Assembly: GCA_016748015.1 (NCBI GenBank)
Contig: JAAOMT010000400.1
Span: 1 to 64,000 of the forward strand
Direction: 5' to 3'
DNA length: 64,000 nucleotides
DNA from: Geosiphon pyriformis
Taxonomy: Eukaryota > Glomeromycota > Glomeromycetes > Archaeosporales > Geosiphonaceae
Shown here: positions 5,005 to 46,600 of the stretch, piece after piece
How positions within the stretch are numbered: the stretch's first letter is position 1
Layout of the letters: the number at the start of each line of letters is the position of its first letter
Notes under the pieces: generated by a model
What the model was told of the DNA's origin: nothing
Databases searched by the model: none
What the model saw: the letters and a program-made list of their open reading frames with translations, nothing else
Program-made: the position numbers and the translations under genes

Positions 5005-5147
5005 TTTTTTTTTTTTTTTATTTTATTACGTTTTATGAGTGAGGTCCAAACACTACCTAGAGCTATACATCAAAGAAATGACATAAACTAAGTGTGAATC
5101 ATGCTCTTTCTACACGTGACCAGCCACTCAGGCCGATCAGGACAATA
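5005..5147 (-). other. LINE L2 3' UTR and poly-A tail
   Basis: After the ORF2 stop come about 125 bases and then an A tail (plus-strand T run 5005-5019). The UTR contains a block beginning TGATCGGCCTGAGTGGCTGG that is recognisable, with transitions, in LINE copies C, D and E just before their own tails. It is a candidate recognition site for the element's own reverse transcriptase. Confidence 0.7.
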
Positions 5148-11696: not shown

Positions 11697-11811
11697 GACA
11701 AAAGGGTTATTAGTTAAAAAAATATTGATATAATACTAATAAGAGAAAAATAAAAACTTCTTCTTTAGAAAATAACTCGTTGGGGTTTTCTAGGAGTAAG
11801 AGAGAAAGAAG

Positions 11812-17200: not shown

Positions 17201-17315
17201 TCTGTCAAGTTACATGTTAGTTCAGTAAATAATTTTTTGGCTGGCATGGTAAAAATTTTTTTGGAAAATGAGTTGTTTTTAATAAACAACTTGTCTATTG
17301 CTTTTTGCAAACCAA
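14255..17315 (+). pseudogene. LINE C ORF2, EEP and RT part
   Basis: The start codon position is ATA instead of ATG, followed by TDLVWEFAMCNVQ, the EEP N-terminus. EEP continues to about 15040 (14411-14797 is open for 128 residues: FLSGLNKEFLGAGMAIIMNN, and SENFNKNG at the catalytic GDFN block). RT spans about 15560-16900: NNKAARLLKISNKLWKNYS, KPIALIKTVQKILFKIFSNK, and a palm reading FVNN in place of FVDD (about 16545), with both catalytic Asp turned to Asn. Many TAG/TAA/TGA stops occur. Dead copy. Confidence 0.8.
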
Positions 17316-18037
17316 TGTTATTTATAGAATATAGGAAGTATATTAGCATATAAATTAGCCAATCAGAAGTAGTCATAGTAAATGTGGAATTCCAGAATTT
17401 CTCTTAAAGGAATTGCAAGATTCCAAGAATCTCAGAATTCTTAATATAAAGAATTGAAGAATCTCAATTATGTATATATATCAGTAGTATTAGAAGTAGA
17501 AAAAACAGACCTCTCAGTTTAGATTTAATCTAAGTGATCTTTCAACTCACAAATATTAATAAAATAATTATTATCTATTTCAAATTTACTCTCCACTATC
17601 AACACTTCATATTGATAGTAATTGATACTTAACCACACTAAAACAATAGCTCTTAATCATGGCTATTGACAGAATACTAATCATTATTTGCCTTGGCTTA
17701 TTTCTTATTTTTTTTCCTTGTTGTTATTTATTAATTGATTAAAAGATTAAGTACTGAAATACAAACATCATAAAGACTGGTAAGAAATCTGTGAAACAAA
17801 GATAGAACACTCATAGATTTAAGGATAGCTTACCAAGAGAATTACTGACCACTATGTTGAAAAAAAAATTTGACAGAATTGTGATTCTGGAAGGCTACTG
17901 AAACAACAATTAAATCTCTGTTCATTATACAAAGATTTCCACAACAAAATCTTCAGATACCAACACCAAAATATCAATCAAGCACCAAGTTACAGGTTTG
18001 TTATTTGATTTGAGACCCCAAATAATTACTTGTAGCA
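17316..18037 (+). repeat. LTR1 (5' LTR)
   Basis: 722 bp from TGTTATTTATAG to TTACTTGTAGCA. It is preceded by CCAA, which is also found after LTR3. It contains an upstream block rich in GAATTC-like imperfect palindromes, then two hairpins: ACTATCAA (17595-17602) pairing with TTGATAGT (17612-17619), and a CAATAGC/GCTATTG pair near 17643-17667. Confidence 0.9.
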
Positions 18038-18039
18038 TT

Positions 18040-18053
18040 TGGTGCTCCCTATA
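18040..18053 (+). promoter_or_regulatory. Primer-binding-site-like sequence after LTR1
   Basis: TGGTGCTCCCTATA starts two bases after the LTR end. The TGG start fits pairing with a tRNA 3' CCA. I cannot name the tRNA without a tRNA set from this genome. Confidence 0.5.
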
Positions 18054-18099
18054 AGATATAATCCTACAAAAAACTGGTGCCAACAACAATCATTCAAAA

Positions 18100-21000
18100 G
18101 TGGCAGAATCAAAAATCATAGGAGCAAACCATTTAGAATTCGCCAAATCCTTGTTTCAACAGTACAGCCAACAATTAAGATTGAACAATAACTATTTCCC
18201 AGCAGAATCAGCCTTTAACTTCTACATCAATGATAAAATTACAGACTGTTTAAGAGGAACAGTTAACATTGAATCCATAAGAGAAAATTTCTATACAGAA
18301 TTGTTTCAACATACTAGCTTACCAAAAAACTACAGTTTTGCACCAATCATCAGGGAAATCAATCAAACTATTGAAAGGTACACCCAACAACAATTCTTCA
18401 TTACTTATACAGACAAAGACAAAGAAAGATTGCAAACACCAGTGGTAATACCAAAACAGATACAACTACCTACTTGAAAGAAAACCAGAGTTAAATCACC
18501 AACCAATCCATCATACCATTATATACCAGAAAGTGCCATCAATATCTCTTCAACAGATGTGTTCACATCAAACATAATATCAACATTTGGATGACTCTCA
18601 TTTCAAAGTAAACAAAAAAAAGCAGAATTACTAAGAACCTATAGTGATTACTTTAAAAGATTTAAATCGCAATTACCAATGCCATCAGAATTCCGATCAC
18701 TATCATCTCAACCAGATTTTAGAAACACAAGTCCTTGGGAGATAATGGCATTAGAAGAAGAGAAAGAAGAGATTCAAAAATTTAATTATTAAAATCTGAT
18801 TGCAGATTTCCAACTTCGAATTATCAATCAAACCCAGAACTATATCAACCAAATTACCTACTTATAACACAACAGCCAATCTATCAACCACCAGTTTATT
18901 AACCAACAATACCAGTAGTTTATTAACCACAGTTTCAATCTATCTATTGGCCATAGCCTTAAGTAATATATCAACTCCAACCAATTTCAACACTACCAGC
19001 TCAGATGACATTAGGAAATTCCAGATCGAGAATTACCCAAAACTGGCAATTAGTAATGATTGTCTACTAACTGATTCTCAGCTCTTTAAACCAGCCATTA
19101 AAATCACACCAACAGAGTTCAGGAACTGGGTACACCCAAAATCCAAGTTTCTAGAACTATTTAAGTCTCCTGATAACTCCAGAAAACACCATATTTCACA
19201 ACTTGGAAACCAAACAAAAACAGCCACTTACCAACAATATTCTGCCAGCAACCATTACTGAGGACAAATTACTTACCACTATCTTCTCTTTTGAACTCGA
19301 AGAACCAGTTGAAATATTACTATTTAGTGGAGCTGCTCTCGAAAAAAACCCATCACTGCAATGTACACTGATGTCAAAGTTAATAGCCACTCCATCAAAC
19401 TGATTTTAGACAGTGGATCAATTGGCAGCATTATTATGAGACAACTTATGGACCAATTAAGTCACCAAGTTGATTAAGCTGCTAGTGCACAAATTATCAC
19501 TGCTAATGAAATGACCAAAACTCTGATCAGCAAAATTGATGACTTTCCTATAGAAGTCAACAGCATTATCATGCCAATTAAGATATTAGTTATGGAAGCC
19601 ACTCAATATCAAGCACTTATTAATAATAATTGGCTGTCCAAAACCAATGTAATACTTGATTGAAACACGCAGGAACTTCAACTTAACCAGAACAGTTGAC
19701 ACATATGTGTACCAGTTATGTGTGACTATTTCAAGACTATTAACACACCAGCACCTCTTATCAAATTTGAAGAAGAAGAGAAAAAACTGACCTGGAAAAC
19801 CTATCAAGTATTATGGACTGAAGGCGACCACAACAAGTTACTGCCAATACCCTTCTGAAATGACAACAGAAAAAAAAAACAAAAAAATGAACTTACTTGG
19901 AATGCTGACCAAGCCTGGAGAACTGACAATGACCTGAACAAATTATCAACTTGGGAGTGGGAAGAAAATACCAAAGAAAAAGAAAAAGAGTCAGCACCAA
20001 CTACTATTACCATTTATATTCCTTACACTTATACCATACCACCACCATCTAACTATCACTGACCAAAACTAGTATGCATTGACTGTGGCAAAAAGTTGTC
20101 CACAATGGACACATGCTGTGATAATGATAAAAAATGGCAGATGGCAACTAAATTTTATTGCCGTTTATATAATATTGAATGGTTTGGATGACCAAAAAGA
20201 CAAAGAAATGTGGAATGACATTCCTGGGAGAAAAGGAACATGTAACAAATCATGTCAGTACATGATTTTAATAAGTAACTGGATAAAAAAAAGAACATCA
20301 ATAGAAGCTGTCTGAAGAAGAGCAGTAAAACATCTGGACAATTGTCCATACAATGAGATATGATGAATAGCACTTGCCAAAATCAAAGATGTGTCATTAG
20401 AGGAAATCAGAATAGTGAAAAACAATTCTCCAAAACTCATAGAACTCAACTGGAACCCAGAACCAGTCATAAATCTTCTGAATCCAGAGCAATTCCATGA
20501 ACACTACCAAGAATTAGCACCCACTCAAGAAGAACAAAAACAATGCCTAGAAGAAATCAACATTTGACTATGTAACTACTGTTTAATTCCATATAACTTT
20601 CAATATTGTAATAAGTGTGACCTTATTTACAATCCACCACCATGTATAATCTACACAATTCCAGAAGAAGACAAACCAATCAGCAGCTGCGTATTGGAAT
20701 CAGAATCAACTTTCAATCCTGATTTAAACTCTGACAATGATGATGATAAAAACAATGGTTCCAGCTTCACTCAAAATAGCAACAAAAAATACAATGATTG
20801 AAACTCAGATTCAAACTCTAAACAATACATTGCACTTCTTGATCTCTCCAAGAAGCAAGAACTAAAATGGTTTAGTAATAATAACAAAAGTATTATACCA
20901 AAATGCATACATAATACCGATGTAGGATTTAATCTGAAATATCCAGGACAATATGCCATCAAATTGGAACCATATTCATACACTTGCATCAATCTGAAAA

Positions 21001-21103
21001 TAGCACTGGAAATTTCAGCAACAACAATGGTTCAATTAACATCTAGGAGCAGTTTAGCAAAAAAGAGAATCAACATCAGAAAAAGAATAATTGATGCAGA
21101 ATA
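18100..21103 (+). pseudogene. Left internal region: truncated gag, protease, Cys-rich, dUTPase
   Basis: 18100-18477 is the gag N-terminus (125 residues, no ATG visible; it begins at a GTG), ended by a TGA where the right-hand copy has Trp (STWKK). Around 18790 the sequence jumps to what corresponds to about 23690 of the right-hand copy, so the capsid core and CCHC knuckle are deleted. Protease follows (about 19370-19850) with the active-site-like LDSGSIGSI. A Cys-rich part (about 20060-20620) starts CIDCGKKL. A dUTPase start follows (HNTDVGFNLKYPG near 20910, then SRSSLAKKRI). LTR2 cuts the frame within dUTPase motif 3 at 21103. Confidence 0.8.
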
Positions 21104-21884
21104 TGTAATATTACACATAGAATATAGGAAGTATATTAGCATATAAATTAGCCAATCAGAAGTAACCATAGTAAAATATGGAATTCCAGAATTTCTCTCA
21201 GAGGAATTGCAGGATTCCAGAAATTTCAGGATTCTTGTACAAAGAATCACAGAATTCCTGGTGTGAAGAATTGAAGAATTGAGAAATCTCAATTATGTAT
21301 ATATAGTGATAGCATTAGAAGTAAAAAAGACAGACTTTTCTGTTTAGATTTGATCTAAGCAATCTTTCCATTTACAAATATCAATAAACAATTATTCACT
21401 ATCTCCACTATTAATACTTTATGTTGATAATAATTAATACTTAACCACACTGGAACAATAGCTCTTGATCATGGCTATTGACAGGATACTAATCTGCAAC
21501 TACTTTGGTTCATTTTTCTTATTTTTTTTTATTTTTTTTTTATTTTTTTTGTTATTCTTTTGTTTTACTAATTGATTGAAGATTAAATGCTAAAGTTACT
21601 GACATCACAGATAGCCTGATAAAAAACCCAGAAATAAGAGTAAAATTATATATTAATGGATAACTTATCAAAAGGACACAACTGTCAGAATAAATCTGGC
21701 CACCAAGCTGAAAAAGAAATTGGGAAAGCAACTTAATAACAACAGCAATATCATCATTAAATCTCTGTCTATTATACAAAGAACTCCACAACAAAACCTT
21801 CAGAAACCAACATAATTACATTAATTAAATACCAAGTTATGGGTTTGTTATTTGCTTGGAGATCCCAAATAATTGCTTGTAACA
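21104..21884 (+). repeat. LTR2 (internal LTR)
   Basis: 781 bp, ending in TTGCTTGTAACA, followed by a primer-binding-like site and a full internal region, so it acts as the 5' LTR of the right-hand element. Its left side has no purine tract; it abuts the coding sequence IIDAEYV of a dUTPase. The CAATAGC/GCTATTG hairpin is at 21456-21480. Confidence 0.88.
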
Positions 21885-21886
21885 TT

Positions 21887-21904
21887 TGGTGCTCCCTGTG
21901 AGAT
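21887..21904 (+). promoter_or_regulatory. Primer-binding-site-like sequence after LTR2
   Basis: TGGTGCTCCCTGTGAGAT, two bases after the LTR. The first 11 bases are identical to the site after LTR1, supporting a conserved primer site. The matching tRNA is not identified. Confidence 0.55.
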
Positions 21905-21949
21905 ATAATTCTATAGAGAACCAGCACCAACAACCTCATTTAAACAGTA

Positions 21950-24002
21950 GCAGAATCCAAAAAAATAAGAACAAACCATTTGGGATTTGCAAAATCCTTA
22001 TTCCAACATTATCACATCTATCTCGGATTAACAAATAATAGTTGGTCAACAAAATTAGCTTTCAATTGCTATGTTAATAAGAAAATTGTATACCATTTAG
22101 AAGGCCAAAAAGATCCAGAATTCACCTTCAACAATTTTTTCAGTGAACTACTCTAAAGCACTATCCTTCCACAAAACTATTTATTTACACCACTAATCAC
22201 AGAAATAAACAGAAAAATTGAAAAATACACCAAATAAAGATTTTTCTATTATATTTGCTGACAAAAGAAAAGGAAGACTACAAATACCAGTAGGAACCCC
22301 AAAGCAAATCCAACTATCTACTTGGAAGAAACAAAGATTTGATTTATCTGCCAATCCATCTTATTATTACACATCTCAAAGCACTATTAATATAACATTA
22401 ACAGGCATGTCCACCATAAACATAACAACACTATTAAACAAAATTCTATTCCAAAATAAACAAAAGAAAACAGAGTTACTAGGAACATATAGTGATTACT
22501 TTGAGGGATTTAAATCATGATCTCTAATGCCATCAGAAATTTGATTACCACCACCACAACCAAATTTTGGAGCCATTAGTTCTTGGGAAATAACTGACTC
22601 TAAGGAAAAGAAAGGTAGCAATCAGGAAAATAGTAAACAGAACCTGATCTTAGAAAATCCAGAAATTGGGACTCTGGTTAATCAAAACCCAAAAAATCAG
22701 AATGATCGAAACCCCAACATTAATAATCAACAACACTTACCTCTGGTAATCATGATCAATTCACCACTAGCTCTACCAATCAACAATTAGCAACAGCAAC
22801 AGCCACAACCACCACCCCAGCAGCAACTACAACAACAACTTTACCCACCATTAGTTCAACAACAACAACTGATTATGCAAATGGCATATGTACCAATTGC
22901 CAAACTCAAAAAATTTATTGGCAAAGAAGATAATGCTCAGATTTGGCTTAATAATATCACCAAAGCAATCACTGCTAACAATTGGAATGACACCAGAGTC
23001 CTACAGGCCATTTCATATTTTTTGCAAGATACTGCTGATTCTTAGTATCAAAGCTTGATCAACAAACCTGTCACTTTCGACACATTTAAAACAGAGTTTT
23101 TGAGATATTTCAGCAACAATAATAGTATTAATTGCTTAGCTAACACTTTCACTACCATCTAACAAGGAAAAAATGAAGCAGTTACCACTTACTTGGGATG
23201 CTTCCACAGAAATTTGCATCAGATTCAGGCCATACAGACTGATTATTTCACAGTACCACAAATTTTAAATCAATTTATTAGAGGCCTGCACAGTAGCATC
23301 CTTCAACACATACATCCATTGTATTCAGCAGACCTTCAAGCCACCATTATAAATGCCAGAGATTTTAAAGCTGCTGAATTAAAAGCCAATCATGCCCAAG
23401 CTGTAAATCTAGTAATAAATGGATCATCTGACTTGAATTCTAAGTTGAAGCAGTTCAGTGATTCCATCAATCAGAAATTGAAAAGATACTTAGCTAATAT
23501 CAATCAAGCAATTTATCAACCACCACAACAATGCAGCAATCAAAAAAACTCCAATTGTTTCCAAAATCTACTATGTTTGACATTATCAACCAATTAACAG
23601 TGACAACAGAAAACATGCACTTGTTACTATTGTGGTAGACAAAGACACTTGCAAATTGACTGTTACCAATGTTTAAATAACCAATAATTGGGAAATTAAT
23701 ATTGAAACTCCAATTGCCAGTTTCAAATCCTGAGTTATCAATTAAACTTAGCTCCATATCAAACAACTTATATGCCACTGACACAGCAGTCAATGTATCA
23801 ATCACTTATATATCAAGCTTCAATTTATTAGTTAACAACACCTGTCATGTATTAACTGCAGTTTTAGCCTATCTATCAGCCACAGTCTCAAGTAATCTAT
23901 CAACCCCAACAAATTCAAACACTACCACAAAACTTACCTCAAAATGGAATCCAAAGACCAAGACTGACACAACAAAACTGGAAATTATCAATAGTAGTCC
24001 AT
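21950..24002 (+). pseudogene. Right internal region: gag, first part
   Basis: The gag N-terminus (about 21950-22620) matches the left copy (STWKKQRFDLSANPS; LLGTYSDYFEGFKS). A Gln-rich linker follows (22780-22880). The Ty3-type gag capsid core begins near 22890 (IAKLKKFIGKEDNAQIWLNN) and runs to 23597 (ILNQFIRGLHSSI). A zinc knuckle CYYCGRQRHLQIDC (C-x2-C-x4-H-x4-C) lies about 23616-23660. Stops occur at former Gln, Trp and Arg codons (for example TAA before QGKNEAV and TGA after GFKS). The frame is interrupted at 24002 by an antisense solo LTR. Confidence 0.82.
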
Positions 24003-24883
24003 TGTTACAGATAATTATTTGGGGTCTCAAGTCAAATAACAAATCCGTAACTTGGTATTGAATTGGTATTCTGGTGTCAATATCTGAAGGTTTTGTTGTG
24101 GAGTCTTTTGTATAATAGACAGAGATTCAAGTGTTGTCTTTCCCATAGCCTTCCGGAATTACAATTCTGTCAAATTTTTTTTTCAGCATGGTGGCCAGTA
24201 ATCTTGGCAGAGATGCTCTTCTGATAAGCTATCCTTAAATTCTCAATTCCTATACCCTTCTTTTGGGGTCTTTTATCAGGCTATCTTTGACGTCAATAAC
24301 TCAGCACTTAATCTTTAATCAGTTTAGTAAAACCAATGAAATGACAAAACAAAAGAAATAAAAGAAAAAATAAAGAAATAAACAAAAGCAATTGCAAATT
24401 AGTATCCCATCAATAGCCATGATCAAGAGCTATTGTTTTTGTGTGGTTAAGTATCACTTACTATTAACATAAAGTGTTGATAGTGGAGAGTGAATTGAGA
24501 TAGTAAATAATTATTTATTGATATTTGTGAATGAAAGGTTGCTTAGATCAAATCTAAATTGAGAGGTCTGTCTTTTTTACTTCTAATGCTACCACTATAT
24601 ATACATAATTTGAGTTCTATGAAATTGCTCACATTCCCAAGCAATGTCCTATAATTTCTCAAGCAATGCTCACATTACTGAGCAATATGCCATATTTTTT
24701 TAACATCACTCCACATTGCTGAGTGATGTGCTGTGATTTCTGATATTGCTCCACATTGCTGAGCAATGTGCCATACTTTTTGACATTGCTCCACATTGCT
24801 AAGCAATGTGCTTATGTGCTAACTACTACTCTCCTATTGGTCTACTATTTTCCTATATCTGTTTTCCTTTTCTATAAGTAACA
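24003..24883 (-). repeat. Antisense solo LTR inside gag
   Basis: 881 bp. Read on the minus strand it runs from TGTTACTTATAG to TATCTGTAACA. It is flanked by the 4-bp duplication CCAT (23999-24002 and 24884-24887). Internal sequence (hairpin blocks at 24410-24470, AAATAATTATCTGTAACA end) shows it belongs to the same LTR family as LTR1-3, with a longer U3-like part. That part holds five tandem 40-41-bp units (24630-24810), each centred on a palindrome such as CACATTGCTGAGCAATGTG (24752-24770). Confidence 0.9.
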
Positions 24884-25679
24884 CCATCAACTGATCCCCA
24901 GTTTCTCAATTCAGCCATCAGAATCTTGACAACAGAATTCGAACACTGAATACACCCAAAACCTAAATGTCTAACAGTACTTAAGCCTTCTGGTTACCCC
25001 AGAAAACATCTTTCTTAACAACTGGGAACTCAACCAAAACAAATCACCCACTAACAATATACTTCTAATTACTATAACCAATGATGAATCACTAGCAGCA
25101 ATTTTTCTATTTGAATTTGAGGAACTATCACAAATACCATTGTTCAGTAGAGCTACACTCAAGGAGAAACCTATTACTGCCATGTACACTAATGCTAAAG
25201 TTGATGGTCAGGCCATAAAACTGATTCTAGATAGTGGTTCAGTAGGCAGCATCATTATCAGACAACTCATAAATCAATTAAGTTGTCAAGTTAACTATGT
25301 TGCCAGTGCAAAAATTATTACTGCTAATGGAACCACAAAAATGCTTATTGGAGAGATTAATGAGTTTTTATTCAAAATCAATGGTCTCATTATGTCCATT
25401 AAAGTTTTGGTAATGGAAGTTATTCAATACCAAGCTTTAGTTGATAACAACTGGCTGTTTAAGACCAATACCATACTTGACTGGACCACACAGGAACTAC
25501 AATTCAGCCAAAATAGTCAACACATGCAGGTTCCAGTCATGTGTGAACACTTTAAAGTTTTTTCAAGAAACCAACTATTGATCGAGCTGAAGGAAGTAAA
25601 GGAGAAACCTATCTGGAAAGTGTACCAAGTCTTTTGGACCAATGAAAATCACAACAAATTACCACCAATACTCTTGTAG
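24884..25679 (+). pseudogene. Right internal region: gag end and aspartic protease
   Basis: Sequence resumes after the solo LTR in register with the left copy. The open part 25140-25679 (179 residues) contains LILDSGSVGSIIIRQL, a retropepsin-like D-S/T-G active site (about 25225-25255), and the downstream MEVIQYQALVDNNWL, also found in the left copy. The frame ends in TAG at 25677. The role is maturation of Gag-Pol in the original element; here it is cut off from gag and RT. Confidence 0.8.
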
Positions 25680-25879
25680 AACAACAATGGGAAAGAAAAA
25701 AAAAAAGAAAAATCTACCTGGAATTCTAACCAAGCCTGGAGAACCAACAACAACCAGAAAGAACTAATAAATTAGGAGTGGAAAGAAAATACAAAAGAAA
25801 AAAAAAAGGAAGGAAGAAGAACCAATATCAACCACCACTACTATTTATACCTCATATACATATACTCTACCACAACAAT

Positions 25880-26560
25880 CTAACTATCACTGCCCAAAAC
25901 TGGTATGCATCAATTGCGACAAAAAATTGTTATCAATGGGCACATGCTATGGCAATAATAAGGAATACCAGACAGCAACTAAGTTTTATTGCCACTCATG
26001 CCTCATTGAATGCTTTAGAAGACCAAAATGAGTTGAAAAATGGGATAATGAACTATGCTTGGCTTGTAAAGAAACTTTCCTTAATAAAGGAATATGGAAC
26101 AACATTTCTGGGAAAAGAGGAACATGTGATGAATCATGTTAGTACATGATTCTTTTAAGTGACTGGATAAGAAAAAGAATGTCCATAGATGCTGCCTAGA
26201 GACAAGCAGCCAAATGCTTAGATGGATGTCCACACAATGATGACAAAATTTGGCAAATGGCTCTTACCAAAATTGAAGAAGCATCATCAGAAGAAATAAG
26301 AATAATAAAAAACAACTCACCAGAACCTATAGAACTTGACTGAGACCCAGAACCAGTCATAAATCTACTGAATTCAGAACAATTTCATGAACACTACCAG
26401 GAATTAGCACTCACTAGAAAGGAACAAGAGCAATAGTTAAAAGAAATAAACACAAAACTATGTGACTATTGTTTGATCCCATGTGACTTCCAATATTGTA
26501 ATAAGTGTGACTTTATTTACAATTTACCATTACACATAATCTACACAATCTTAGAAGAGG
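25880..26560 (+). pseudogene. Cys-rich cassette between protease and dUTPase
   Basis: In the frame matching the left copy one reads CINCDKKL, YCHSCLIEC, CLACKET, CDESC and, after an acidic/Glu-rich stretch, CDYCLIPCDFQYCNKCDF, i.e. several CxxC-type pairs that could bind zinc. The same series is present in degraded form in the left copy (20060-20640) and in the Ty3 relic near 52200-52680. It is followed by an Asp/Asn/Ser-rich linker (26600-26700). Stops at about 26030, 26155 and 26342 break it. I do not recognise this as a standard retrotransposon domain, and its function is unknown. Confidence 0.6.
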
Positions 26561-26789
26561 AAAAACCAATCAGCAGCTGCACATCAGAATTGGAATCAAT
26601 TTTCAATCTTGATTCAAACTCTGATAATGATGATAACAAGAATAACAGTTCCAGCTCCATTCCAAATGACCATAAAAATTACAATGATTCAAACTTCAAT
26701 TCAAACTCCAAAACATATATTGCACTCCCTAATCTCATCAAGAAACAGGAACTTAAATGGTTTAGTGATAATAATGAAGGTATTATGCC

Positions 26790-27249
26790 AGAATGTGCAC
26801 ATAATACTAATGCAGAGTTTGATCTGAGATATTTGGGAAAAGATTCTATCAAATTAGAACTCCATTCATGCACCTGCATTAATCTCAAAATAACACTGGA
26901 AATTTTAACAACAACAATGATTTAATTAGCATCTAAGAGTAGCTTAGCCAAAAAGGGAATTAAGATTAAGGGAGGAATAATTGACACAGAATATGTAGGA
27001 AATATTATTGCTATGTTACAAAATGACTCAGAAAAGGCATATCTTATAGATCCAAACAAAAAGATAGCACAGGCAATATTCCTACCTCTGGTGAAAATAG
27101 CTCAGTTAATGTTAATGGGAAACAGAGAAAAATTAAAAATTACCACTAGAGGGATACAGAGTTTCAGATCTATAGGTAGAATAGATATACCAGTTAATAT
27201 GGCAGAGGAAGAAATTATTGACAAGGAAGAAATTATCTCCACCCATTAA
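26790..27249 (+). pseudogene. dUTPase-like domain in the Ty3/gypsy polyprotein
   Basis: Five blocks in the order and spacing of trimeric dUTPases are visible: motif 1 HNTNAEFDLRY (about 26797); motif 2 SKSSLAKKGI (about 26934); motif 3 GIIDTEYVGNIIAMLQN (about 26974); motif 4 KIAQAIFLPL (about 27061); and a motif 5 remnant RGIQSFRSIGR (about 27149, family consensus RGxxGFGSTG). Known trimeric dUTPases hydrolyse dUTP to dUMP and so limit uracil in cDNA. Motif 1 has lost the DAG Asp (NAE), motif 5 has lost its glycines, and a TAA lies between motifs 1 and 2, so this copy is not functional. The domain sits between the Cys-rich cassette and RT. Confidence 0.8.
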
Positions 27250-28566
27250 CCAATTTCTATCCCACCATATGACTAGTACATAGTAACCATAGAGAGAAAA
27301 GTAAAGGATCAGATTCAGATTTTCGAGACAAAAGCAACATTTTGTGAATTAGGAGAGATTGGATTAGTCAATTTACACATACCAGTCAAGAACCACAGTC
27401 ACATCAAAATTTTCATTTACAACAATACAGAAAACATCATTAAGATACCAGAAGGAATTACCATTGGATACTTAACTACTAAAATTGAAAACCAACTGCC
27501 AAATACTATTTCAGACTTTCCACAACTGTGTGGATATGTAGACATCACATCTCACTCCATATACAGATGAGAAGAATGTTATTTGCTCCAATCAAAACAA
27601 TTGGAACAAATGAACTTGGGAAATCTAGACCCACTACAATATATGCAACTCAAGATGCTACTCAACAATTTTAATAACATTTTTGCCAGTGAAAATGAAT
27701 TTGGCAGAATTGACATCATCCAACATCAAATCAAGACTGAAGATATAATGCTAATTAAACAGAGAGCATACAGAGTACCACCAGCTAATTATAAGATCAT
27801 TTGTCAAGAAATTAACCGAATGCTTGACAATGGGCTAATTCAGTTATTAATGAGCCCATGGTCGTCATCAGTGGTATTAGTTCATAAGAAAAATGGAAAA
27901 ATCCACTTTTGTGTAAATTACCAAAAATTAAATGGAGTAACAAAAGGAGATAACTACTCAACTCTAAAGATTCAAGAACTTTTTAATGCTTTTGGAGAAA
28001 AGAAATGATTTTTAATTTTAGACTTAGACAGTGGTTATTGACAAGTAGCCATAAAACCAAAAGACAAAGAGAAAATGACTTTCACAACTTAGAAAGAAAA
28101 TTTTGAATTTAAAGTAATGTTATTTGGCTTGATGAATGCTTTTGCCACATTTCAATGGCTAATGGAAATTGTCTATACTATACTACTATAGAAATCAGTA
28201 GTTATATACTTAGATAACACCAATGTGTTCTCAAAAACATTTGATGATTATTTGCATCATCTCCAACAAGTATTTGAAAGACTCAGATAAGCAGAATTGA
28301 AATTAAATGCAAACAAATGCTTCTTTGGCAAAACTGAACTCAAGTTCTTAGGACATATTGTAAGCAAAAATAGTATTAAAACAGATTCAAATAAAATTGA
28401 GATCATCAAAAACTTTTTAATACCAAATAATCTCACAGAATTAAGAGTATTCTTGGGATTTGCTGGATACTACTGCTGTTTTATCAAAGACTTTTTCAAA
28501 ATAGCTCAACCACTACACCAGCTTCAAACAAAGAACACCAAATATAAATGGACAGAAACTCAGTAA
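27250..28566 (+). pseudogene. Ty3 reverse transcriptase
   Basis: A pre-RT linker (27250-27650) leads to RT: INRMLDNGLIQLLMSPWSSSVVLV, NGKIHFCVNYQKLN, LDLDSGYWQVAIKPKDKEKM (with a TGA at the W position), LFGLMNAFATFQ, then the palm YLDN (about 28209-28220) where YLDD is expected, and LGHIVSKN with the LRVFLGFAGYYCCFIKDF connection. Stops at 28006, 28090, 28189 and 28288 separate the blocks. The Asp-to-Asn change in the palm removes a metal ligand, so this RT is dead. Confidence 0.88.
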
Positions 28567-29010
28567 GAAGCTTTTAATACATTAAAAAGAAAGCTTATTC
28601 AAGCTTCAGTACTAATCTATTTAGATCATAGCAAGCCATTTGTAATCACAACTGATGCATCTGATCAAACATTAGAAACAGTACTATTACAGAAAAAACC
28701 AAATGGAAGAAAACATCCAGTAGCTTATGCTAGTAGAAACTTAAGTCCAGCTGAAAAGAACTACAGAACTCCAATGCTAAAACACTTAGCTATTTATTGG
28801 GCTGTCATCAAATAGAAAGAATACTTGAGTCAAAAGTTTGATGTATACACTAATCACAAAGAATTGACTTTAATTCAGAAGCAAAAATTTGGAAATGATT
28901 ACCATGCCAGATGGAAGATAGAACTTTTACCATTTAATTATACAGTACATTACAAAAAAGGAAAAAAAAACAGAAATGCTAACAGATTGTCACAAATAAG
29001 ACAAATCTAA
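28567..29010 (+). pseudogene. Ty3 RNase H
   Basis: ITTDASDQTLETVLLQ carries the first catalytic Asp. The Glu-bearing helix reads NYRTPMLKHLAIYWAV without the usual Glu. The third site reads VYTNHKELTLI where TDH is usual (Asp to Asn). The ending, NRNANRLSQ, corresponds to the ADxLSR tail of the family. Together these make it a non-functional RNase H joined to RT, as expected for Ty3/gypsy. Confidence 0.85.
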
Positions 29011-29229
29011 AAACATTCCAACCCAAAAATATAACAAAAAAATGAATATACAAAAATATTAACAACTCCAACATTATATCAATACCAAATTGTTCAAAGA
29101 AAAATTATCTCAAAAAGAACACAGGAACATAAAACAACAATCAAAATATTTTATTAACCATCAAAATATATTTTACCAAAAGAACAAAAGAAATTCAGAT
29201 TAACTAACCAAAGTAATTACAAAACCAGA

Positions 29230-30100
29230 GAAAGAAACAATATTATTTAACATACACTCAGATTTAACAGCAGAATATTTTCATAAAGAAGCAATCATAA
29301 AAAAAAACAGAAAAAGATACTATTGGCCATCAATGTATCTGGACATTATTCAATACATTCAAAGTTGTGATGCTTGTTAAAGAAGAGATGAAACAAAACT
29401 CAGTGAACTATTAAGACCAATCAAAGTGGAACAACCATTTGGTTGTATTGGAATTGACTTAGTCAGACCATTAACAATAACCAGCAGAAACAACAGATAT
29501 ATTACAGTAGTCATGAATTATCTCACAAAATGGCCAGAAGCAAAAGCCATTCAAAGAACAAATGCAGAATCTATTGCCGAATTTATTAATCAAGATTTGA
29601 TCTGTCAATATAGATGTTCAAAAGAACTACTATCAAATCAAGGAACTCACTTTGTAAATAGAACATTGGCAGAATTAAGTCAAAGATTTGGGATAAAAAG
29701 ACCATTATCATCACCATACTATTCACAAACAAATGAGTTAGTTAAAAGGTTTAACAGAACATTATGTAAAGCCATTGTCAAAATCAGCCAAAAAAACCAG
29801 AATAAATGGAATTTGATCATACCATTGGTATTATTAGCTTATTGGACAATGAAATAAGACACTATACAAGCAATATCATTTGAATTAGTATACGGTAGAA
29901 CAACAACATTACTAGTTAAGATAAAAGTCAAAACATATTCAACAGAACCAATAACAGAAGAAAATTTTCAAAGAACATTGTTAAAAAGAACATATGACTT
30001 AATGGAAACACTAGAAAATACATGGTGAAAAGCAGCTAATAACATCCAAAGATCACAAAAAAAACAAAAAAAAAGACACGATAACCAACTACCAGAGAAA
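29230..30100 (+). pseudogene. Ty3 integrase
   Basis: An N-terminal zinc-binding part (HSDLTAEYFHKEA ... YIQSCDAC, about 29248-29380) has Tyr where the second His of HHCC is expected. The catalytic core (29426-29857 open) shows GIDLVRPLT (first Asp kept), LSNQGTHFVN (Asp to Asn) and SQTNELVKRFNRTL (Glu to Lys), so two of the three DDE residues are lost. The C-terminal part continues to about 30280 (EFKIGNKILLYHIKAE, PFHIEEILGNRAYKLRL), resembling the GPY/F-type end of Ty3 integrases. No chromodomain is evident. Confidence 0.85.
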
Positions 30101-30289
30101 CCAGTTGAATTCAAAATTGGAAACAAAATACTTCTATATCATATTAAAGCAGAAAAACAATAGAGTGGAAAATTTGACTCCAAATAGGACAGACCATTTC
30201 ACATAGAAGAAATTCTTGGAAATAGAGCTTATAAATTAAGGTTGAACAACAAAATCTTAACCAAAGCAGCACATGATAATCAACTAAAA

Positions 30290-31104
30290 CAATATCATCA
30301 TATAGTATTATCATCTACTTGTAATATTCCACAATTAAGAGTACAGAGAATACTAGTTAAACCAGATGAGATTTTATGAGATCTAGAACCAATTATAATT
30401 ATTGAACCAAACACATAAAATTGAACAACCAAGGAGTATATAAAGACACAGTATATGTGACAAAAGACAGCAGAAAAATAGAAATTACTAACAGTATTCA
30501 CTCATTAACACAACAACTTTTTCAACTAATCCAACAACAAGAAATGGAAATTACAATCAATTAACAAACTATTAGATACACAAACACCAGAAAAAGACTA
30601 TGAGATAAAATACGGAAAAAAACAGAAAACATGGTGAACAAAATAATCACAAAAGTGAAATTGGCAATAGAAACACAACCAAAAGTCACCCAATATTAAG
30701 AGTTAACTATAGAAACTTAAAATTGGTAGATACAACAATTTCCAAAAAACTTTTATTACTTTTATTTGGGACAACACTTGAACATTCAGAGCTTGTATAC
30801 AGATAAAACAAAATAATTATTTGATACAACAATACTGCAACAACTGGAACAATTTGTGGAGAAAAACAATTTGACCATACAAGCAAGAGCCATTTATTGG
30901 CTACACACCAAATTTCAAGATTGACCAGAAATTTTACTCAATCCAGAAATGAATTTTATTACTATTAACCAAATGGAAAAAATAACAAATGCTCAATTTG
31001 AAGAATTACAAAACAAAATAGCACAAGTAATTCTTGAAAAAAAAGTTTAAAAAATACTCAAAAGTGAAGAATTAGAATTAGGAGATCTTAATAGAGCTCA
31101 ATAT
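30290..31104 (+). pseudogene. Post-integrase coding remnant, unknown
   Basis: After the integrase, phrases such as YVTKDSRKIEITNSIHSLTQQLFQLI (read in pieces), LEQFVEKNNLTIQARAIYWLHTKFQD and TNAQFEELQNKIAQVILEKK remain translatable between stops up to LTR3. No signal peptide, furin-like site or membrane anchor is visible, so nothing points to env. It could be an extra ORF or a long integrase C-terminal extension. The role is unknown. Confidence 0.45.
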
Positions 31105-31121
31105 TAAAGAAAAAGAAATAA
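31105..31121 (+). promoter_or_regulatory. Polypurine tract before LTR3
   Basis: AAAGAAAAAGAAATAA directly upstream of the LTR3 start (31122), in the position of a plus-strand primer. The equivalent is absent before LTR2. Confidence 0.6.
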
Positions 31122-31805
31122 TGTTATTCATAGAATATAGAAAGTATATTAGTATATAAATTAGCCAATCAGAAGTAGCTATAGTAAATGTAAAATTCCA
31201 GAATTCTTCTTAGAGAAATTGCAAGATTCCAAGAATCTCAGGATTCCTAATGTGAAGAATTGAAAAATTGAGGAATTTCAATTATGTATATATATCAGTA
31301 GCATTAGAAGTAGAAAAGACAGACCTCTTAGTTTAGATTTAATCTAAGTGACCTTTCAACTCACAAATATCAATAAAATAATTATTTTCTATCTCAAATT
31401 CACTCTCTACTATCAACACTTTATGTTGATAATAATTGATACTTAACTATACTGAAACAATAGTTCTTGATTATGGCTATTGATAAAATACTAACCATTA
31501 TTTGCCTTGGCTTATTTCTTATTTCTTATTTTTTTTATTTTTATTTCTTTTTCTTGTTGTTATTTACTAATTAATTAAAGGATTAAGCACTGGAATACAG
31601 ATGTCATAAGAACTGGTAAAAAACCCATAAAACAAGAGTAAAACACTCATAGATTTGAGGATAGTTTACCAGAAGAATTACCGGCCACTATGCTGAGAAA
31701 AAATTTCCACAACAAAATCTTCAGATACTAATGCCAAAATATCAATTAAGCACCAAATTACAGGTTTGTTATTTGATTTGAGACTCTAAATAATTACCTG
31801 TAATA
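31122..31805 (+). repeat. LTR3 (3' LTR)
   Basis: 684 bp from TGTTATTCATAG to TTACCTGTAATA, with the terminal CA changed to TA. It is followed by CCAA (31806-31809), the match to the bases before LTR1. Hairpin blocks near 31405-31480 are conserved with transitions. Confidence 0.9.
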
Positions 31806-33552
31806 CCAAATAAGTTTCTAATATTTAGTATTTTAGAGCAATTCTTGTATTATAACTCTGTTTTTTTTTGAAGCAGTTGGTGTTGTGTTTGGTAACAGAC
31901 TTCTGGACAAAAAAGAAAATGTAATGAACTGGAAAACTTTTTGGCAGTAAAAAAAGTTGAATCTAAGAGGCTCTGTGCCTTACTGGTTTAGGCTGGTATC
32001 TGAATTTATAAGAGAAAATGGTTTTTGGAGGTTGAATTTGCTGTTGTTTCTGAATTGTCTGTGCTAAATGTCTTAAAATCCAAAAAGTTCTGTGATGTTT
32101 ATAATTGTTTACTAAAGATTTGGTCTGATTGTATTAAAGTCTATACAGATAAGTCCTTGAAGAGTGCTGGTTTTGCTAAGATAGCAAGTAAAGTGACTGC
32201 TTATTTTTTGGCTGCTAATGTAAGTGTTGGAATTAGAGTGTATAGGCTGTTGTCTTTTATTTTGGCTGAATTACAGGCTGTTGTTTTGGCTCTAGAGTGT
32301 GTTCTGTCTTTATGTGCTGTAGTTCTGTATTTAGACAGCCAATTTGCAATTAATGCTTGTGTGTCTGAGACTTCTTTTGCAGTGTCTGATTTTCACAATT
32401 AATTTTGGATGAAAAAATTACATATAGTCAATTTTATTAAGGATAAAAACATTTTAGTTAAATGAGTAAAAGTTAAAAAACATTTAGAGATTTCAGACAA
32501 TATTAAAGCTAATGAACTGGCTGACAAAACCATTTTTTCTTTTTTTTCTTTACATGTAAGGATTTAAAAACAGTTTTTGGTTGCTAAAAATGTCTGGTAA
32601 TACTCATTATTTTGTTTATGATTTGTACTGATCAATTTGCTGTGCTTATTGAGAAGCTGGTCTTGGTTTTAATATTGTTTTAAGTATTATAATTAAAAAA
32701 ATAGATTGGACTACTATTGCAATAAGTTGGCATCTTGACTTACACATGCTTTCTGGATTTACTAATAGAAAATCGGCTAATCTGTACACATACATAATAA
32801 AAGTAGTACACAGATGTCTGCTAGTGGTAATTAGGAAGAGGTTATATAACAGAAATTATTTTGAAGTATTATGCTTACTGTATGATAAAGTGGAGTTGTT
32901 AAATCATGTTTTTACTTGTTTTAATAATATTAGTCTCTGTAAAAACATTTTGGCTAAGATTACTAAGAGATGAATATCATTAACAGATTCTTTTTGCTTG
33001 TTTAATTTTGCTATTTTGCACTTGCTTTTAATGTATGTTTTAAATATGATTCTGTATACTATAATTTACAAGGGTTTTGTATTAAGGAATTAGTATGCTG
33101 AAACTGTTTTAATCTTTAAAGAGAAGAAAAAAACTGCTCTGGTTTTGATTAAATATGTTTAATTTATGATAGAATTGTATTGCACTAAAGTATGATTGAT
33201 TAAATTCAAACATAAAGTAGATATGGAAAAGATTAATTTGGTCAAGGATAATAGTTTGATTGTGAGCTTGTTTCATTGTGTGATATTTATGTTGTTAGAT
33301 AGAATAGTTTGTATGCTTAGTATTATAGAATTCTTTGCTATTAATTTTAGTAGACACAAAATATGTCATTTTTTCTTTGGTTTAAGTGATAATGTTTTTA
33401 TTAATATAGACATATAATATTCTCTTAACTGGTTTAAGTGGTTAGTTATATATAGTAAATATATAAGCTGTATTTAGTTTAAACTATTTAGTTTGGTTTT
33501 ATGTACTAGATAGCAGTTGGACTTTATTTATAAAATCTTGTAATAAAAAAAA
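31806..33552 (+). mobile_element. LINE copy C, 3' part
   Basis: This continues the LINE sequence broken at 17315. The junction region AAATAAGTTTCTAATATT matches the corresponding place in LINE copy D (about 55615). It ends with the conserved LINE 3' UTR block (about 33425-33535) and a short A tail (33543-33552). Confidence 0.88.
31815..33418 (+). pseudogene. LINE C ORF2, RNase H and zinc-knuckle part
   Basis: RNase H motifs: VYTDKSLK (about 32139), LAELQAVVLALE, YLDSQFAINA and, after a stop, SDNIKANELADK. A downstream knuckle CLLYDKVELLNHVFTC (about 32874) keeps one Cys, the His and the last Cys of the L2 pattern. 33196-33417 matches the C-terminal segment of ORF2 ending at the LINE stop. 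Several TAA/TAG/TGA stops make it non-functional. Confidence 0.8.
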
Positions 33553-34986: not shown

Positions 34987-35199
34987 GAATTGTGAATTGT
35001 TTTTGCAAAAATAAATTCTTAATTAAACTCCACATCATCAATTTGGTACCTGCCCCTCCCCATACGTCAATTGTTCACTTTCGAATTGTAAATTGTTCTT
35101 TCAAAAATAAATTCTTAATCCAACTCCATATCATTATTTGGTAACCGCACTGATAAGGGAATTCTTACCCTCTCTCCACCCATCAATTGCTCACTTTCT
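34987..35199. repeat. Tandem duplication over the RING gene stop codon
   Basis: Two direct units, 34987-35082 and 35083-35199. Both start GAATTGTRAATTGTT and contain AAAAATAAATTCTTAAT, and both end near CAATTG(T/C)TCACTTTC. Unit 2 includes the last ~28 codons and stop of the RING gene. Unit 1 is a downstream copy lacking about 20 bases and no longer coding. Confidence 0.8.
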
Positions 35200-36443
35200 G
35201 TTGGGGTTGAAATTCCTTCACCGTGACTACTTGATGGTGTGGATTGAATCGAAATTGCTGTTGGTCTACTTTTTAAAACGTCACCTTGTAGGTTAGCCGG
35301 AGCACGGCATGTTGGACAACGAAATGACAAGGGTGAAATTGTTTCCACTGTATAACCTTCGACCAACAACGACGTTCGGAGACAAGAAGTATGGAAACGG
35401 TGATGACATTGAGGTAAGGTGATTATTGTGGTATGTTGTTCATTAGCGTTATGAACTTCACCACAACAACCAACACGTTCCAAAGCACAACTTGTCTGGT
35501 AATTTGAAGAAGAGTGTCGATTAGGAGGTGAATGATAGGGATGTGAATGTTGACCATATCTTGTTCGAGATTGCGAGGAACGATTATTCGAAGAATTGAT
35601 AGCATTAGAAGTAGGAGCTATTCGAACTGTACTTTGAGAAACATTCTCAACTGTTGCTTCATTTATCGGATTATCATGATGATTAATGTCTATGTTATTG
35701 TTTTGTGATGGTTCTTGTTCTTGCCCCTCGACTTCTGCTTCAATTTGGTCTCGACATAGTGGACAGGTATTGTTCTGCCGTAACCATTCAAACAAACATG
35801 GTTCACAAAATAAATGCTTGCAAGGCATTTCACGGATAACAGATGAACATGACTTTTCATTATTCTCTTCTCGATTTTGACTTTCTTTCTTTATATCAAT
35901 CTTTTGATTTTCCTGATCGACACTGTTTAAATCCTTTTTTATAATAAAAAGTTCCAAACAAATTGGGCAACTTGCTTGCTCGTCAATATTTTCTTGAGTA
36001 ATTTCAACTATGGGCAACTCTTTCATTGCATTTTCAGAAGCTCGAGGTTTTTGCGTTTGTTGTGTTGGCCCCATGAAGAAAGGTGTGAAGAAGAATCTGT
36101 TTGGTTCACCATTTTCTCCGGTTGTAGCGTGGACAAAGAAGTGAATTCCGTATGTTTGTAAATTAGGAAAATCATTTCCTTCTTGTTGTTGATGTGTTTG
36201 TTGTGTAGATGTATCATTGTTGTTAATATTGTTTTGGTTGTTAATGGGCAGCTCAAAATTCAAATTGATATTCGGTTGTTGCCCGTTGGGCATGTTGGCT
36301 TCTGTTGCATTTGTGGTAGGCGGGTTATTGGTGTCAGTATTGTTGTTAGGACCAAATATAAAACTGAACGGAAAGAATAAGGAAAAACCACTAGGTTGAT
36401 GTGTGTTTTGGTTGCTAGAAGAATTTGGGTTTGAACCTGACAT
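35115..36443 (-). CDS. Two-RING finger protein, probable E3 ubiquitin ligase
   Basis: An uninterrupted 442-codon frame, no intron needed. The N-terminus is Asn/Thr/Gln-rich (1-100) with a phenylalanine-rich stretch (FFFTPFFMGP, 117-126). RING 1 uses C159, C162, C208, H210, C213, C216, C227 and C230 (C3HC4), with an unusually long 45-residue charged loop between the first and second pairs. A polar linker (235-318) leads to a second RING-like set: C319, C326/C327, C346, H348, H351, C354, C376 and C379 (CHHRFHTSC, CPTC), closer to RING-H2. RING domains recruit E2 enzymes, so E3 ligase activity is a fair inference; the substrate is unknown. The ATG has A at -3. Composition is far less AT-biased than the flanks, and the frame is intact, which suggests a live host gene. 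Confidence 0.88.
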   Translation of the reverse strand: MSGSNPNSSSNQNTHQPSGFSLFFPFSFIFGPNNNTDTNNPPTTNATEANMPNGQQPNINLNFELPINNQNNINNNDTSTQQTHQQQEGNDFPNLQTYGIHFFVHATTGENGEPNRFFFTPFFMGPTQQTQKPRASENAMKELPIVEITQENIDEQASCPICLELFIIKKDLNSVDQENQKIDIKKESQNREENNEKSCSSVIREMPCKHLFCEPCLFEWLRQNNTCPLCRDQIEAEVEGQEQEPSQNNNIDINHHDNPINEATVENVSQSTVRIAPTSNAINSSNNRSSQSRTRYGQHSHPYHSPPNRHSSSNYQTSCALERVGCCGEVHNANEQHTTIITLPQCHHRFHTSCLRTSLLVEGYTVETISPLSFRCPTCRAPANLQGDVLKSRPTAISIQSTPSSSHGEGISTPTESEQLMGGERVRIPLSVRLPNNDMELD

Positions 36444-45100: not shown

Positions 45101-46600
45101 TTTTATTTTTTTTTAATATAAACTTATTAATAATTAGATAAATCTATTGTTAAATATTATTATATTTTTTTTTAAATAAATTAATAACTTATTAAAGCAA
45201 CTTAATAGGCTTGTTGTTATTTGAATTTTATATCTTTAGTATAAATTTAATGTTAAACTAGATTAGTTCTTCTTAAATTGTTGTTATTTTTAACAAATAT
45301 GTTTACATGTTTTATAATTAATTTTTTAAGTTTTTTTTTGTTTTTGTGGCTCTAATTGTTTCATATTAATATGAAATAATTTTTTAATAATAATATAATA
45401 ATTTTTGGTAATAAGTTTGACTTAAATTTTGGAAGAGAATATCTAATTATTTTTGTAAAATTTATAATTATTTATAATAATTCTTGTTAAAAAATATTAC
45501 TGTAAATAATTTTAATTTTTAAATGATTATCTAATATAATAATATAGTTATTAAGATTATAAAATATAATATTAAATTTTTTGACTTCTTTTGGCAAATA
45601 AATATTTGAAATAAAAATTTCATATTTTTTGCAAATTTATTTATTTGATTTGAAGATTTGTTAAATAATAATAAATATTGGGCAGATATATATTTTACAA
45701 ACTTTTCCAAAAGATAAAATGGTAATTATTTTTGGTAATCTAAAAATCTAGTAAGATTTATTTTGTATATTAAAAGCTATATTTACTAAAATTATAAATT
45801 GTTTAATTAATCTAAAGTTTTAAATTTAAAATATTAATTAAAAATAAATAGATAACTTGAACAATTTTTTTAGCATGTTTAATTTTAAATAGCTTTTTGG
45901 TTTTATTTTGAAGTATTATTATAATGTTTTCAATATATTTTGTATCAATGATTTTTTCTTTAATGTTGATTTTTTTGCTTATTAATAATAAACAAGAAGC
46001 AATTTATACTATTGCTTTTAGTAGAATTTTAATAGCAATTTTGAGATTGATTTTTATTAAAAATTTTGGTTGTAACATTAAAATATTTTTTTTAAAGTAT
46101 TAAAAATCATATTTAGTATTGATTTTATGAGCTTTTTCTGGTTTAATTTTTTGTTTATTGTTGTTAAAATATTTGAATAGTGAAGCAGATTGGTTTTTAA
46201 TAAGATAAATTAGAATTATTAAAATTTTAGACTGTACTTCTTGTTTTCCAAATTTAATTTTCTCTTAATTATTTTTAGTAAATAATAATATACTAAAAGC
46301 ATAGTATTTAGAACACTATATATTATTACAGAACATAATATATTTTTCATATAATTAAATGTTTATTTGTTTTAATTATTAAATTTGAGCTTTTTTGAAA
46401 AAATAGGCATAACTAAAAATTAAGTAATAAAGTTTTACTTTATTTTTATAGTCAAATTTAGCTAGTTCTATTGTATATTTAATATATTTAACGTTTTTTT
46501 ATTTAATAAACATTTTTTTAGGATTTTTTATTAATTAAAATTATTGCAAATTTATAAATTATTTTAATATTATATAAATAATAATACAGTTTGTTAAGAG
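42150..46600 (-). mobile_element. Ty3/gypsy relic, minus strand, with dUTPase remnant
   Basis: Reading on the minus strand from right to left: a dUTPase remnant (46060-45850, translating LLLISKKINIKEKIIDTKYIENIIIILQN, matching motifs 2-3 of the better copy), pre-RT and RT (about 45700-44300; LGFFGYIVSKKKLNLIQ at about 44700 corresponds to the RT phrase LGHIVSKN), RNase H (about 44250-43750) and integrase (about 43620-43430, with the IGINLIRLL and VDYPTK blocks in register with the better copy). Nearly every former G/C-rich codon is eroded. LTRs are not delimited. The copy shows that the dUTPase-RT order is a family trait. Confidence 0.75.

What the first reader, a model, noticed from the sequence alone, without database searches (positions are those of the whole stretch)
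26790..27249. A dUTPase-like domain encoded inside a Ty3/gypsy retrotransposon
Seen: five blocks in the right order (HNTNAEFDLRY, SKSSLAKKGI, GIIDTEYVGNIIAMLQN, KIAQAIFLPL, RGIQSFRSIGR) between protease/Cys-rich sequence and RT. The first motifs recur in the left-hand copy (20900-21103, with better motif 1 residues, NTDVGFNL) and motifs 2-3 in an independent minus-strand relic (45850-46060). Known: trimeric dUTPases remove dUTP, and some retroviruses carry one. Inference: the intact ancestor encoded a dUTPase to keep uracil out of its cDNA, which would matter in an AT-rich host.
Basis: partly seen in the sequence, partly recalled or inferred. Interest (0 to 1): 0.88.

Follow-up and report, generated by a model that had tools for sequence, protein, structure and literature searches.

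The report
dUTPase inside fungal gypsy retrotransposons
The window holds decayed copies of a jumping gene of the fungus Geosiphon pyriformis that carries its own uracil-excluding enzyme (dUTPase); the enzyme is real and abundant in this genome, but the same arrangement has already been reported in other fungi and in rotifers.

Summary
Observation and main interpretation hold up. The window is from Geosiphon pyriformis (Glomeromycotina). The domain at 26785-27177 is a trimeric-type dUTPase: Pfam PF00692 E = 1.3e-11 for the piece after an in-frame stop at 26923-26925, 2.1e-5 for the left copy; the minus-strand relic is one too. Less degraded relatives exist: 150 of 150 scored genomic matches exceed Pfam's cut-off, and one uninterrupted ORF reads protease - Cys-rich region - dUTPase - RT - RNase H. 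A window-family relative's model matches dUTPases in 50 of 50 listed PDB hits. Between families median dN/dS is 0.15-0.28: the domain was kept by selection. It is not a recent copy of the host gene, which exists separately; joining the two is rejected (AU p about 1e-12). A gypsy lineage of the same genome has no dUTPase (15 of 30 RT-picked loci), so it is not generally required here. Excluding uracil from cDNA remains inference. Gypsy elements with dUTPase between protease and RT are published (fungi, rotifers): a new member of a known kind. Less expected: a shared Cys-rich module before it, and decay dominated by C-to-T/G-to-A changes.

The parts
21106..22011 (+). LTR b, shared border of the left and right copies
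   Evidence: blastn within the window: 72.5% to LTR a, 74.8-77.2% to LTR c
24975..25679 (+). retropepsin-type protease ORF of the right copy
   Evidence: PF13650 E=1.2e-5, PF12384 Ty3 peptidase 2.3e-5, both over their cut-offs
25885..26511 (+). Cys-rich module between protease and dUTPase, right copy, stops read as X
   Evidence: profile of the module from one A, one B and two C sequences: 251 bits, positions 2-207; no significant Pfam match
26785..27177 (+). dUTPase domain, right copy, five motif regions; interrupted by an in-frame TAA at 26923-26925
   Evidence: PF00692 E=1.3e-11 for the part after the stop; 159 bits to the copy-derived profile
27880..28359 (+). reverse transcriptase core, right copy
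   Evidence: profile of gypsy RTs of this genome, 206 bits; 27571-28008 matches 150 of 150 scored genomic places, the 149 others at 74-83%; that ORF piece alone has no RT match in Pfam
29381..29857 (+). integrase core piece, right copy
   Evidence: PF00665 rve E=6.4e-6, 26.8 bits, below its curated cut-off of 32.6
31119..31803 (+). LTR c, 3' end of the right copy
   Evidence: 83-91% to LTR a, 75-77% to LTR b
17314..18164 (+). LTR a, 5' end of the left copy
20054..20621 (+). Cys-rich module, left copy (two frames)
   Evidence: 44.7 and 146 bits
20895..21107 (+). dUTPase domain, left copy, cut off in motif 3 by the start of LTR b
   Evidence: PF00692 E=2.1e-5; profile 1-71; match to the right copy ends at 21107
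45782..46144 (-). dUTPase relic of family B
   Evidence: 107 bits, profile 2-110; 66% to P0030
46301..46525 (-). end of the Cys-rich module upstream of the minus-strand dUTPase relic
   Evidence: 22 bits, profile 142-206

Best explanation
The domain is a homotrimer-type dUTPase built into the Pol polyprotein of a Ty3/gypsy LTR-retrotransposon lineage with at least three families (A, B, C) in the Geosiphon pyriformis genome. The order is protease - Cys-rich module - dUTPase - RT - RNase H (- integrase). The window's main copies are family C, the minus-strand relic family B. Shown: identity of the domain, its place, its maintenance by selection, its separateness from the host's dUTPase gene. Inferred: after cleavage of Pol, or as part of a fusion, it hydrolyses dUTP inside the virus-like particle, so that less uracil enters the cDNA when host dUTPase is low (for example in non-dividing hyphal nuclei or spores). 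The window copies themselves are decayed relics.
For: PF00692 in the window and in 150 of 150 scored genomic places, best E 7.6e-26. An uninterrupted 1307-aa ORF with PR, dUTPase (E 1.3e-24), RT and RNase H in that order. Fifteen of 30 loci picked by RT score alone carry the domain, 14 of them starting at position 403-423 of the locus and one, incomplete, at 562. Median dN/dS within families 0.58 (A) and 0.47 (B), one C pair 0.30; between families 0.28 (A-B), 0.21 (A-C), 0.15 (B-C, 13 of 16 pairs saturated), dS about 1.5 or more. Motif-3 Asp 14/15, Tyr 15/15; motif-4 Gln 15/15; motif-5 Phe 15/15. The AF2 model of window-family relative P0087 matches dUTPases in 50 of 50 listed PDB hits. Elements A+B+C group together in dUTPase and RT trees (94/95; 85/96; neither starred). 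The host gene is an ordinary eukaryotic dUTPase, E 2e-55. Retroviral precedent for function: passages of PMC4531489.
Against: No activity, trimer or particle data. Fifteen of 30 RT-picked loci belong to a gypsy lineage without a dUTPase match, in the same genome. Some motif residues are poorly kept: motif-2 Arg 6 of 15, motif-1 Gly 9 of 15, last Gly of motif 5 10 of 15, and the window copies have changed motif residues; I read this as post-insertion decay. The G>A to C>T ratio does not separate families with and without the enzyme (A 0.97, B 1.28, none 1.24).
Confidence: 0.85

Rival explanations
1. The dUTPase fold is kept for a non-catalytic role (dUTP or nucleic-acid binding, particle assembly, or signalling), with the Cys-rich module as nucleic-acid-binding partner; catalysis is secondary.
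For: A Cys-rich module precedes the domain in the one A, one B and two C sequences compared and in 13 of 15 RT-picked loci by profile (the two misses, L082 and L083, were cut too close to show it). Staphylococcal phage dUTPases with regulatory roles are among the fold matches (titles); the review says that in some retroviruses the nucleocapsid protein is part of the dUTPase (passage).
Against: The motif-3 Asp and the FGST part of motif 5, which serve hydrolysis, are conserved in 14-15 of 15 RT-picked copies.
Confidence: 0.12
2. The domain is a recent passenger captured from the host's own dUTPase gene.
For: The host has such a gene, and authors of an earlier survey think that gypsy elements of other fungi gained dUTPase independently from different sources (PMC2864245, passage).
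Against: AU test rejects elements + host (p 9.9e-13) and elements + five eukaryotic cellular enzymes (p 0.0068). None of the 150 places scored with a eukaryotic cellular query exceeded 42% identity (that search missed the host gene itself). Three families share the domain.
Confidence: 0.02
3. The resemblance is to dCTP deaminase, a fold relative, rather than to dUTPase.
For: PF22769 (DCD) also matches, E 8.5e-4 in the window piece and 6.7e-9 in family B.
Against: dUTPase scores far better on the same pieces (1.3e-11 and 7.1e-24), and the GFGSTG tail of motif 5, typical of dUTPase (recalled), is present.
Confidence: 0.01

Closest known systems
PosPlaTy3-5 and other dUTPase-bearing fungal gypsy elements (Postia placenta; Phanerochaete and Tuber cited there), PMC2864245 (passages)
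   Same: Ty3/gypsy element with dUTPase between protease and RT (PosPlaTy3-5).
   Different: Other hosts (basidiomycetes, an ascomycete); no Cys-rich module mentioned in the passages seen. Not compared by sequence here.
Juno, Vesta and TelKA elements of bdelloid rotifers, PMC5408684 (passages)
   Same: dUTPase between PR and RT in retrovirus-like LTR elements; Juno also has an extra Zn knuckle, there after the dUTPase.
   Different: Rotifer elements; here the Cys-rich part precedes the dUTPase. Not compared by sequence here.
Metagenome gypsy Pol P0143 (JGI, 882 aa)
   Same: PR - linker - dUTPase - RT - RNase H; 48% identical in the dUTPase, 53.7% to family A in RT/RNase H; in the same dUTPase-tree group as A, B, C, together with one long-branched phage row (95/91).
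   Different: No significant match to the Cys-rich profile (E 0.051).
Lentiviral dUTPases with solved structure (1duc, 1dut, 1f7d)
   Same: Same fold, GYxG-type motif 3 (alignments); ranks 2-4 among PDB sequences for family B but 14-16 for family A.
   Different: The review says retroviral dUTPase genes lie at two different places (passage); by recall, between RNase H and integrase in lentiviruses. No phylogeny with them was made.

Membership tests
homotrimer-type dUTPase (PF00692) | profile match above the curated cut-off | tested here: met
   44.8 and 24.7 bits against 22 in the window; 150 of 150 scored genomic places
homotrimer-type dUTPase (PF00692) | five motifs in order with Asp and Tyr in motif 3 and GFGSTG tail (motif definitions recalled) | tested here: met
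   met in RT-picked relatives, single residues eroded in some copies; partly eroded in the window copies
homotrimer-type dUTPase (PF00692) | beta-rich dUTPase fold | tested here: met
   AF2 block pLDDT 73-98 in residues 11-100, residues 116-153 under 50; Foldseek 50 of 50 listed hits dUTPase, TM by target up to 0.76
homotrimer-type dUTPase (PF00692) | trimer and dUTP hydrolysis | not testable with these tools
   needs protein
Ty3/gypsy (Metaviridae) LTR retrotransposon | PR, RT, RNase H, IN in this order in Pol | tested here: met
   PR, RT, then IN (IN under its cut-off) in the window; PR, RT, RNase H in one ORF; no single copy was shown to have all four
Ty3/gypsy (Metaviridae) LTR retrotransposon | long terminal repeats | tested here: met
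   LTRs a, b, c and an inverted LTR
Ty3/gypsy (Metaviridae) LTR retrotransposon | primer binding site, polypurine tract, target-site duplication | not tested
   not looked for
PR-dUTPase-RT gypsy elements as in PosPlaTy3-5 and Juno/Vesta/TelKA | dUTPase between PR and RT | tested here: met
   window order
endogenous retrovirus | env gene | not tested
   not looked for; an extra ORF downstream of RNase H in family A (L033:326-1078) has no Pfam match

The most novel reading that the evidence does not exclude
The Cys-rich module and the dUTPase form one functional unit, a nucleic-acid-tethered dUTPase acquired once from a bacterial or phage-like source by a gypsy lineage that then became one of the most abundant components of a glomeromycete genome, while a lineage without it solves or ignores the uracil problem otherwise.
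Probability: 0.2. Interest if true: 0.55.

Novelty: new member of a known kind. Interest (0 to 1): 0.38.

Why it matters
One genome holds large gypsy lineages with and without a dUTPase, plus an ordinary host dUTPase, so the long-assumed reason for retroelement dUTPases (replication where host dUTPase is low) can be compared within one host. The kind of element is known, so the step forward is modest.

Tried and rejected
Chance resemblance: rejected by Pfam, copy-derived profile and the reversed control. Host-gene origin: rejected by AU tests. Loss of host dUTPase: rejected; a Chlorella query gave 150 scored places at up to 42% identity and did not show the host gene, but a motif pattern gave two matches, one an intron-split host gene, the other an element copy. 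Loss of uracil-DNA glycosylase as cause of the C>T excess: not shown; one weak fragment just over the cut-off exists (25.2 bits), not followed up. RT-stage G>A signature as a test of the uracil idea: not discriminating. Fold of the Cys-rich module: AF2 unreliable, pLDDT 45; best Pfam match in that part zf-Vps39_C at E 0.19, best PDB sequence match E 0.41. Phylogeny against retroviral dUTPases was not made: I chose not to type animal-virus letters into scripts. An earlier count said 16 of 30 RT-picked loci carry a dUTPase; the listing has 15 with and 15 without.

Biases to know. Loci are ranked by dUTPase score, so I used RT-picked loci for the selection test: 13 of the 15 RT-picked dUTPase loci (L054 and L063 dropped as frame-broken or partial) plus 2 family-C loci. 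The two C loci were picked among RT matches without stops, so they are biased to a good RT. In the dUTPase tree the nine rows labelled 'bac' are 9 of the 10 non-Geosiphon rows listed (P0117 dropped as near-identical to P0112); only P0105 carries a bacterial name, the rest are unnamed. The phage rows are 6 of 15 listed hits of 895 records. Both sets were taken as closest hits, so 'bacterial or phage-like' is only a direction. RT rows L035, L040, L047, L048 were left out of the RT tree to keep group B small.

Full report
What the window is. Of 120 listed homologues (345 in all) of a family-B dUTPase, 110 are Geosiphon pyriformis gene models (G9A89 tags), with contig lengths equal to those of the genome searched, such as 2,339,621 and 2,733,912. 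Geosiphon is a glomeromycete; a published table gives 129 Mb in 795 scaffolds, 64% repeats and a largest scaffold of 2733.91 kb (PMC9453076, passages); G000 has 124.7 Mb in 406 contigs.

The observation. Pfam independently calls PF00692 at E = 1.3e-11 in 26926-27246 and 2.1e-5 in 20868-21140. The right copy is interrupted by a TAA at 26923-26925; the 5' piece alone has no Pfam match but matches the profile (2.7e-14). The reversed frames give nothing.

The element. In the right copy, protease (24975-25679), Cys-rich module (25885-26511), dUTPase, RT (27880-28359) and an integrase piece (29381-29857, under its curated cut-off) lie in this order between LTRs at 21106-22011 and 31119-31803. The left copy runs from the LTR at 17314-18164 and stops inside dUTPase motif 3 where the shared LTR begins. 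LTRs a and c resemble each other (83-91%) more than either resembles b (72-77%), so left and right are probably a recombined composite (inference).

Less degraded copies. PF00692 is over its cut-off in 150 of 150 scored places out of 3181 first-look candidates; the count is a lower bound. One ORF of 1307 aa, unchanged from the genome, has protease at about 122-226, dUTPase 566-697 (E 1.3e-24), RT 931-1090 and RNase H 1179-1283; it holds no integrase match. For the window's own family (C), annotated gene models such as P0128 and P0129 span the domain, and RT-picked L082 has it in one frame without a stop. The window's RT piece matches 150 of 150 scored places, the 149 others at 74-83% identity, out of 5087 first-look candidates, so family C is abundant.

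Fold. AlphaFold2 of P0087, a window-family relative with 74% identity to the window piece, has mean pLDDT 71.6 and pTM 0.59, good in residues 11-100 and poor after 115. All 50 listed PDB matches are dUTPases, best E 1.4e-5, probability 1.00; 152 matches reach E 0.001 and the rest were not listed. This agrees with PDB sequence matches of families A and B, best E 4.1e-18 and 2.7e-14.

Selection. Among 15 copies picked without regard to the dUTPase, median dN/dS is 0.58 (A), 0.47 (B) and 0.30 (one C pair) within families and 0.28, 0.21 and 0.15 between A-B, A-C and B-C (13 of 16 B-C pairs saturated). The motif columns are better kept than the rest (0.83 against 0.71). Not every motif residue holds: the motif-2 Arg is kept in 6 of 15. 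The RT of the same copies, which was picked for its score, is lower (0.25, 0.13 within A, B). An earlier run on 13 loci gave 0.48 within and 0.27 between.

Origin. In a tree of 32 rows the element dUTPases A, B and C form a group (94/95), with a metagenome gypsy Pol (P0143) and one very long-branched phage row beside it (95/91). Eukaryotic cellular enzymes with the host gene form another (99/96). Joining elements with the host gene is rejected (p 9.9e-13), as is joining them with all five cellular rows (p 0.0068). All elements including P0152 as one clade is not rejected (p 0.08), though the free tree puts P0152 elsewhere, near the cellular rows. The host gene (L065, near G000:C262:402677) is intron-split with motif 3 GVIDADYRG and matches 4oop at 2e-55 (that 4oop is Arabidopsis is recalled). 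The 10 non-Geosiphon single-domain homologues among the 120 listed are metagenomic or bacterial, up to 47% identity, one named (Eubacteriales MAG), and 895 phage records match, each under 60%. A bacterial or phage-like source is thus suggested, not shown.

With and without. Of 30 loci picked by RT score, 15 carry the dUTPase and 15 show no match within the 1.5 kb before RT. The 15 without are a separate RT clade (100/100), and the families with dUTPase group together (85/96, not starred). Two loci of the lineage without it were read upstream of RT: one frame, with a few stops, runs from protease through an acidic linker into RT. So the enzyme is dispensable for gypsy success in this host. Whether the lineage without it lost the domain or never had it is open: P0143, which has it, branches outside both in the RT tree with weak support (80/60), yet its RT/RNase H is closer to family A (53.7%) than to the dUTPase-less family (45-51%).

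Cys-rich module. One A, one B and two C sequences share a Cys-rich region of about 150-206 aa just before the dUTPase, with several conserved CxxC pairs; its profile also matches 13 of 15 RT-picked loci. It has no significant Pfam or PDB match, no match in the 15 dUTPase-less loci and none of significance in P0143 (E 0.051) or P0152. All 120 listed homologues of 313 are Geosiphon. AF2 gave no usable model. Zinc binding is inference.

Function. Retroviral dUTPases matter mainly in non-dividing cells with little host dUTPase, and dUTPase-defective lentiviruses gain G to A changes (PMC4531489, passages). I looked for such a strand-biased signature: G>A per G over C>T per C is 0.97 (95% 0.82-1.13) in A and 1.28 (1.08-1.51) in B, both with dUTPase, and 1.24 (1.10-1.46) without. 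This neither supports nor refutes the role, since post-insertion decay probably dominates.

Novelty. dUTPase between PR and RT in gypsy elements is published for Postia (with dUTPase-bearing Phanerochaete and Tuber elements cited) and for bdelloid rotifers (passages). PF00692 is also noted among transposon-derived proteins of Glomeromycotina (PMC11878562, passage) and as enriched in Entomophthora muscae (PMC10515909, passage). No paper in the held library has both 'Geosiphon' and 'dUTPase'; the Geosiphon genome paper itself was seen only as a reference entry. So this is a new member of a known kind, with the Cys-rich module as its distinctive part.

Noticed in passing
element copies L001-L064: Polarised differences between gypsy copies are dominated by C>T and G>A: 563 of 621 (family A, 20 copies), 736 of 1074 (B, 20 copies), 1542 of 2058 (dUTPase-less, 15 loci). 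They are not confined to CpG (contexts counted for A and B only) and fall on both strands (G>A to C>T rate ratio 0.97-1.28). This looks RIP-like or like deamination of methylated DNA; a paper says RIP signatures were not detected in Gigaspora margarita or Mucoromycotina (PMC8647823, passage). Cytosine methyltransferase pieces are present (10 matches). Repeat specificity was not tested.
   Followed up: partly
52041-52648 (+): A fourth relic of the same element kind: Cys-rich module in two frames, with no dUTPase match near it.
   Followed up: no
24003-24610 (-): An inverted LTR of the same family lies inside the right copy upstream of the protease, probably a nested solo LTR.
   Followed up: no
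L033:326-1078 (-) and L031:5794-6156 (+): Family A has an extra ORF downstream of RNase H without Pfam match; by eye, L031 seems to lack most of the integrase region after its RNase H.
   Followed up: no
4183-11735 (-), also 13414-15487 and 32004-32402 (+): ORFs that read like non-LTR (LINE-type) retrotransposon proteins with RT and RNase H; judged by eye, no family search done.
   Followed up: no
35115-36455 (-): 446-aa ORF with a RING-like Cys/His pattern, probably a host gene; judged by eye.
   Followed up: no
38001-60000: Very AT-rich stretch, 9-20% G+C per 2 kb, against 28-35% in the gypsy copies at 16001-32000.
   Followed up: no
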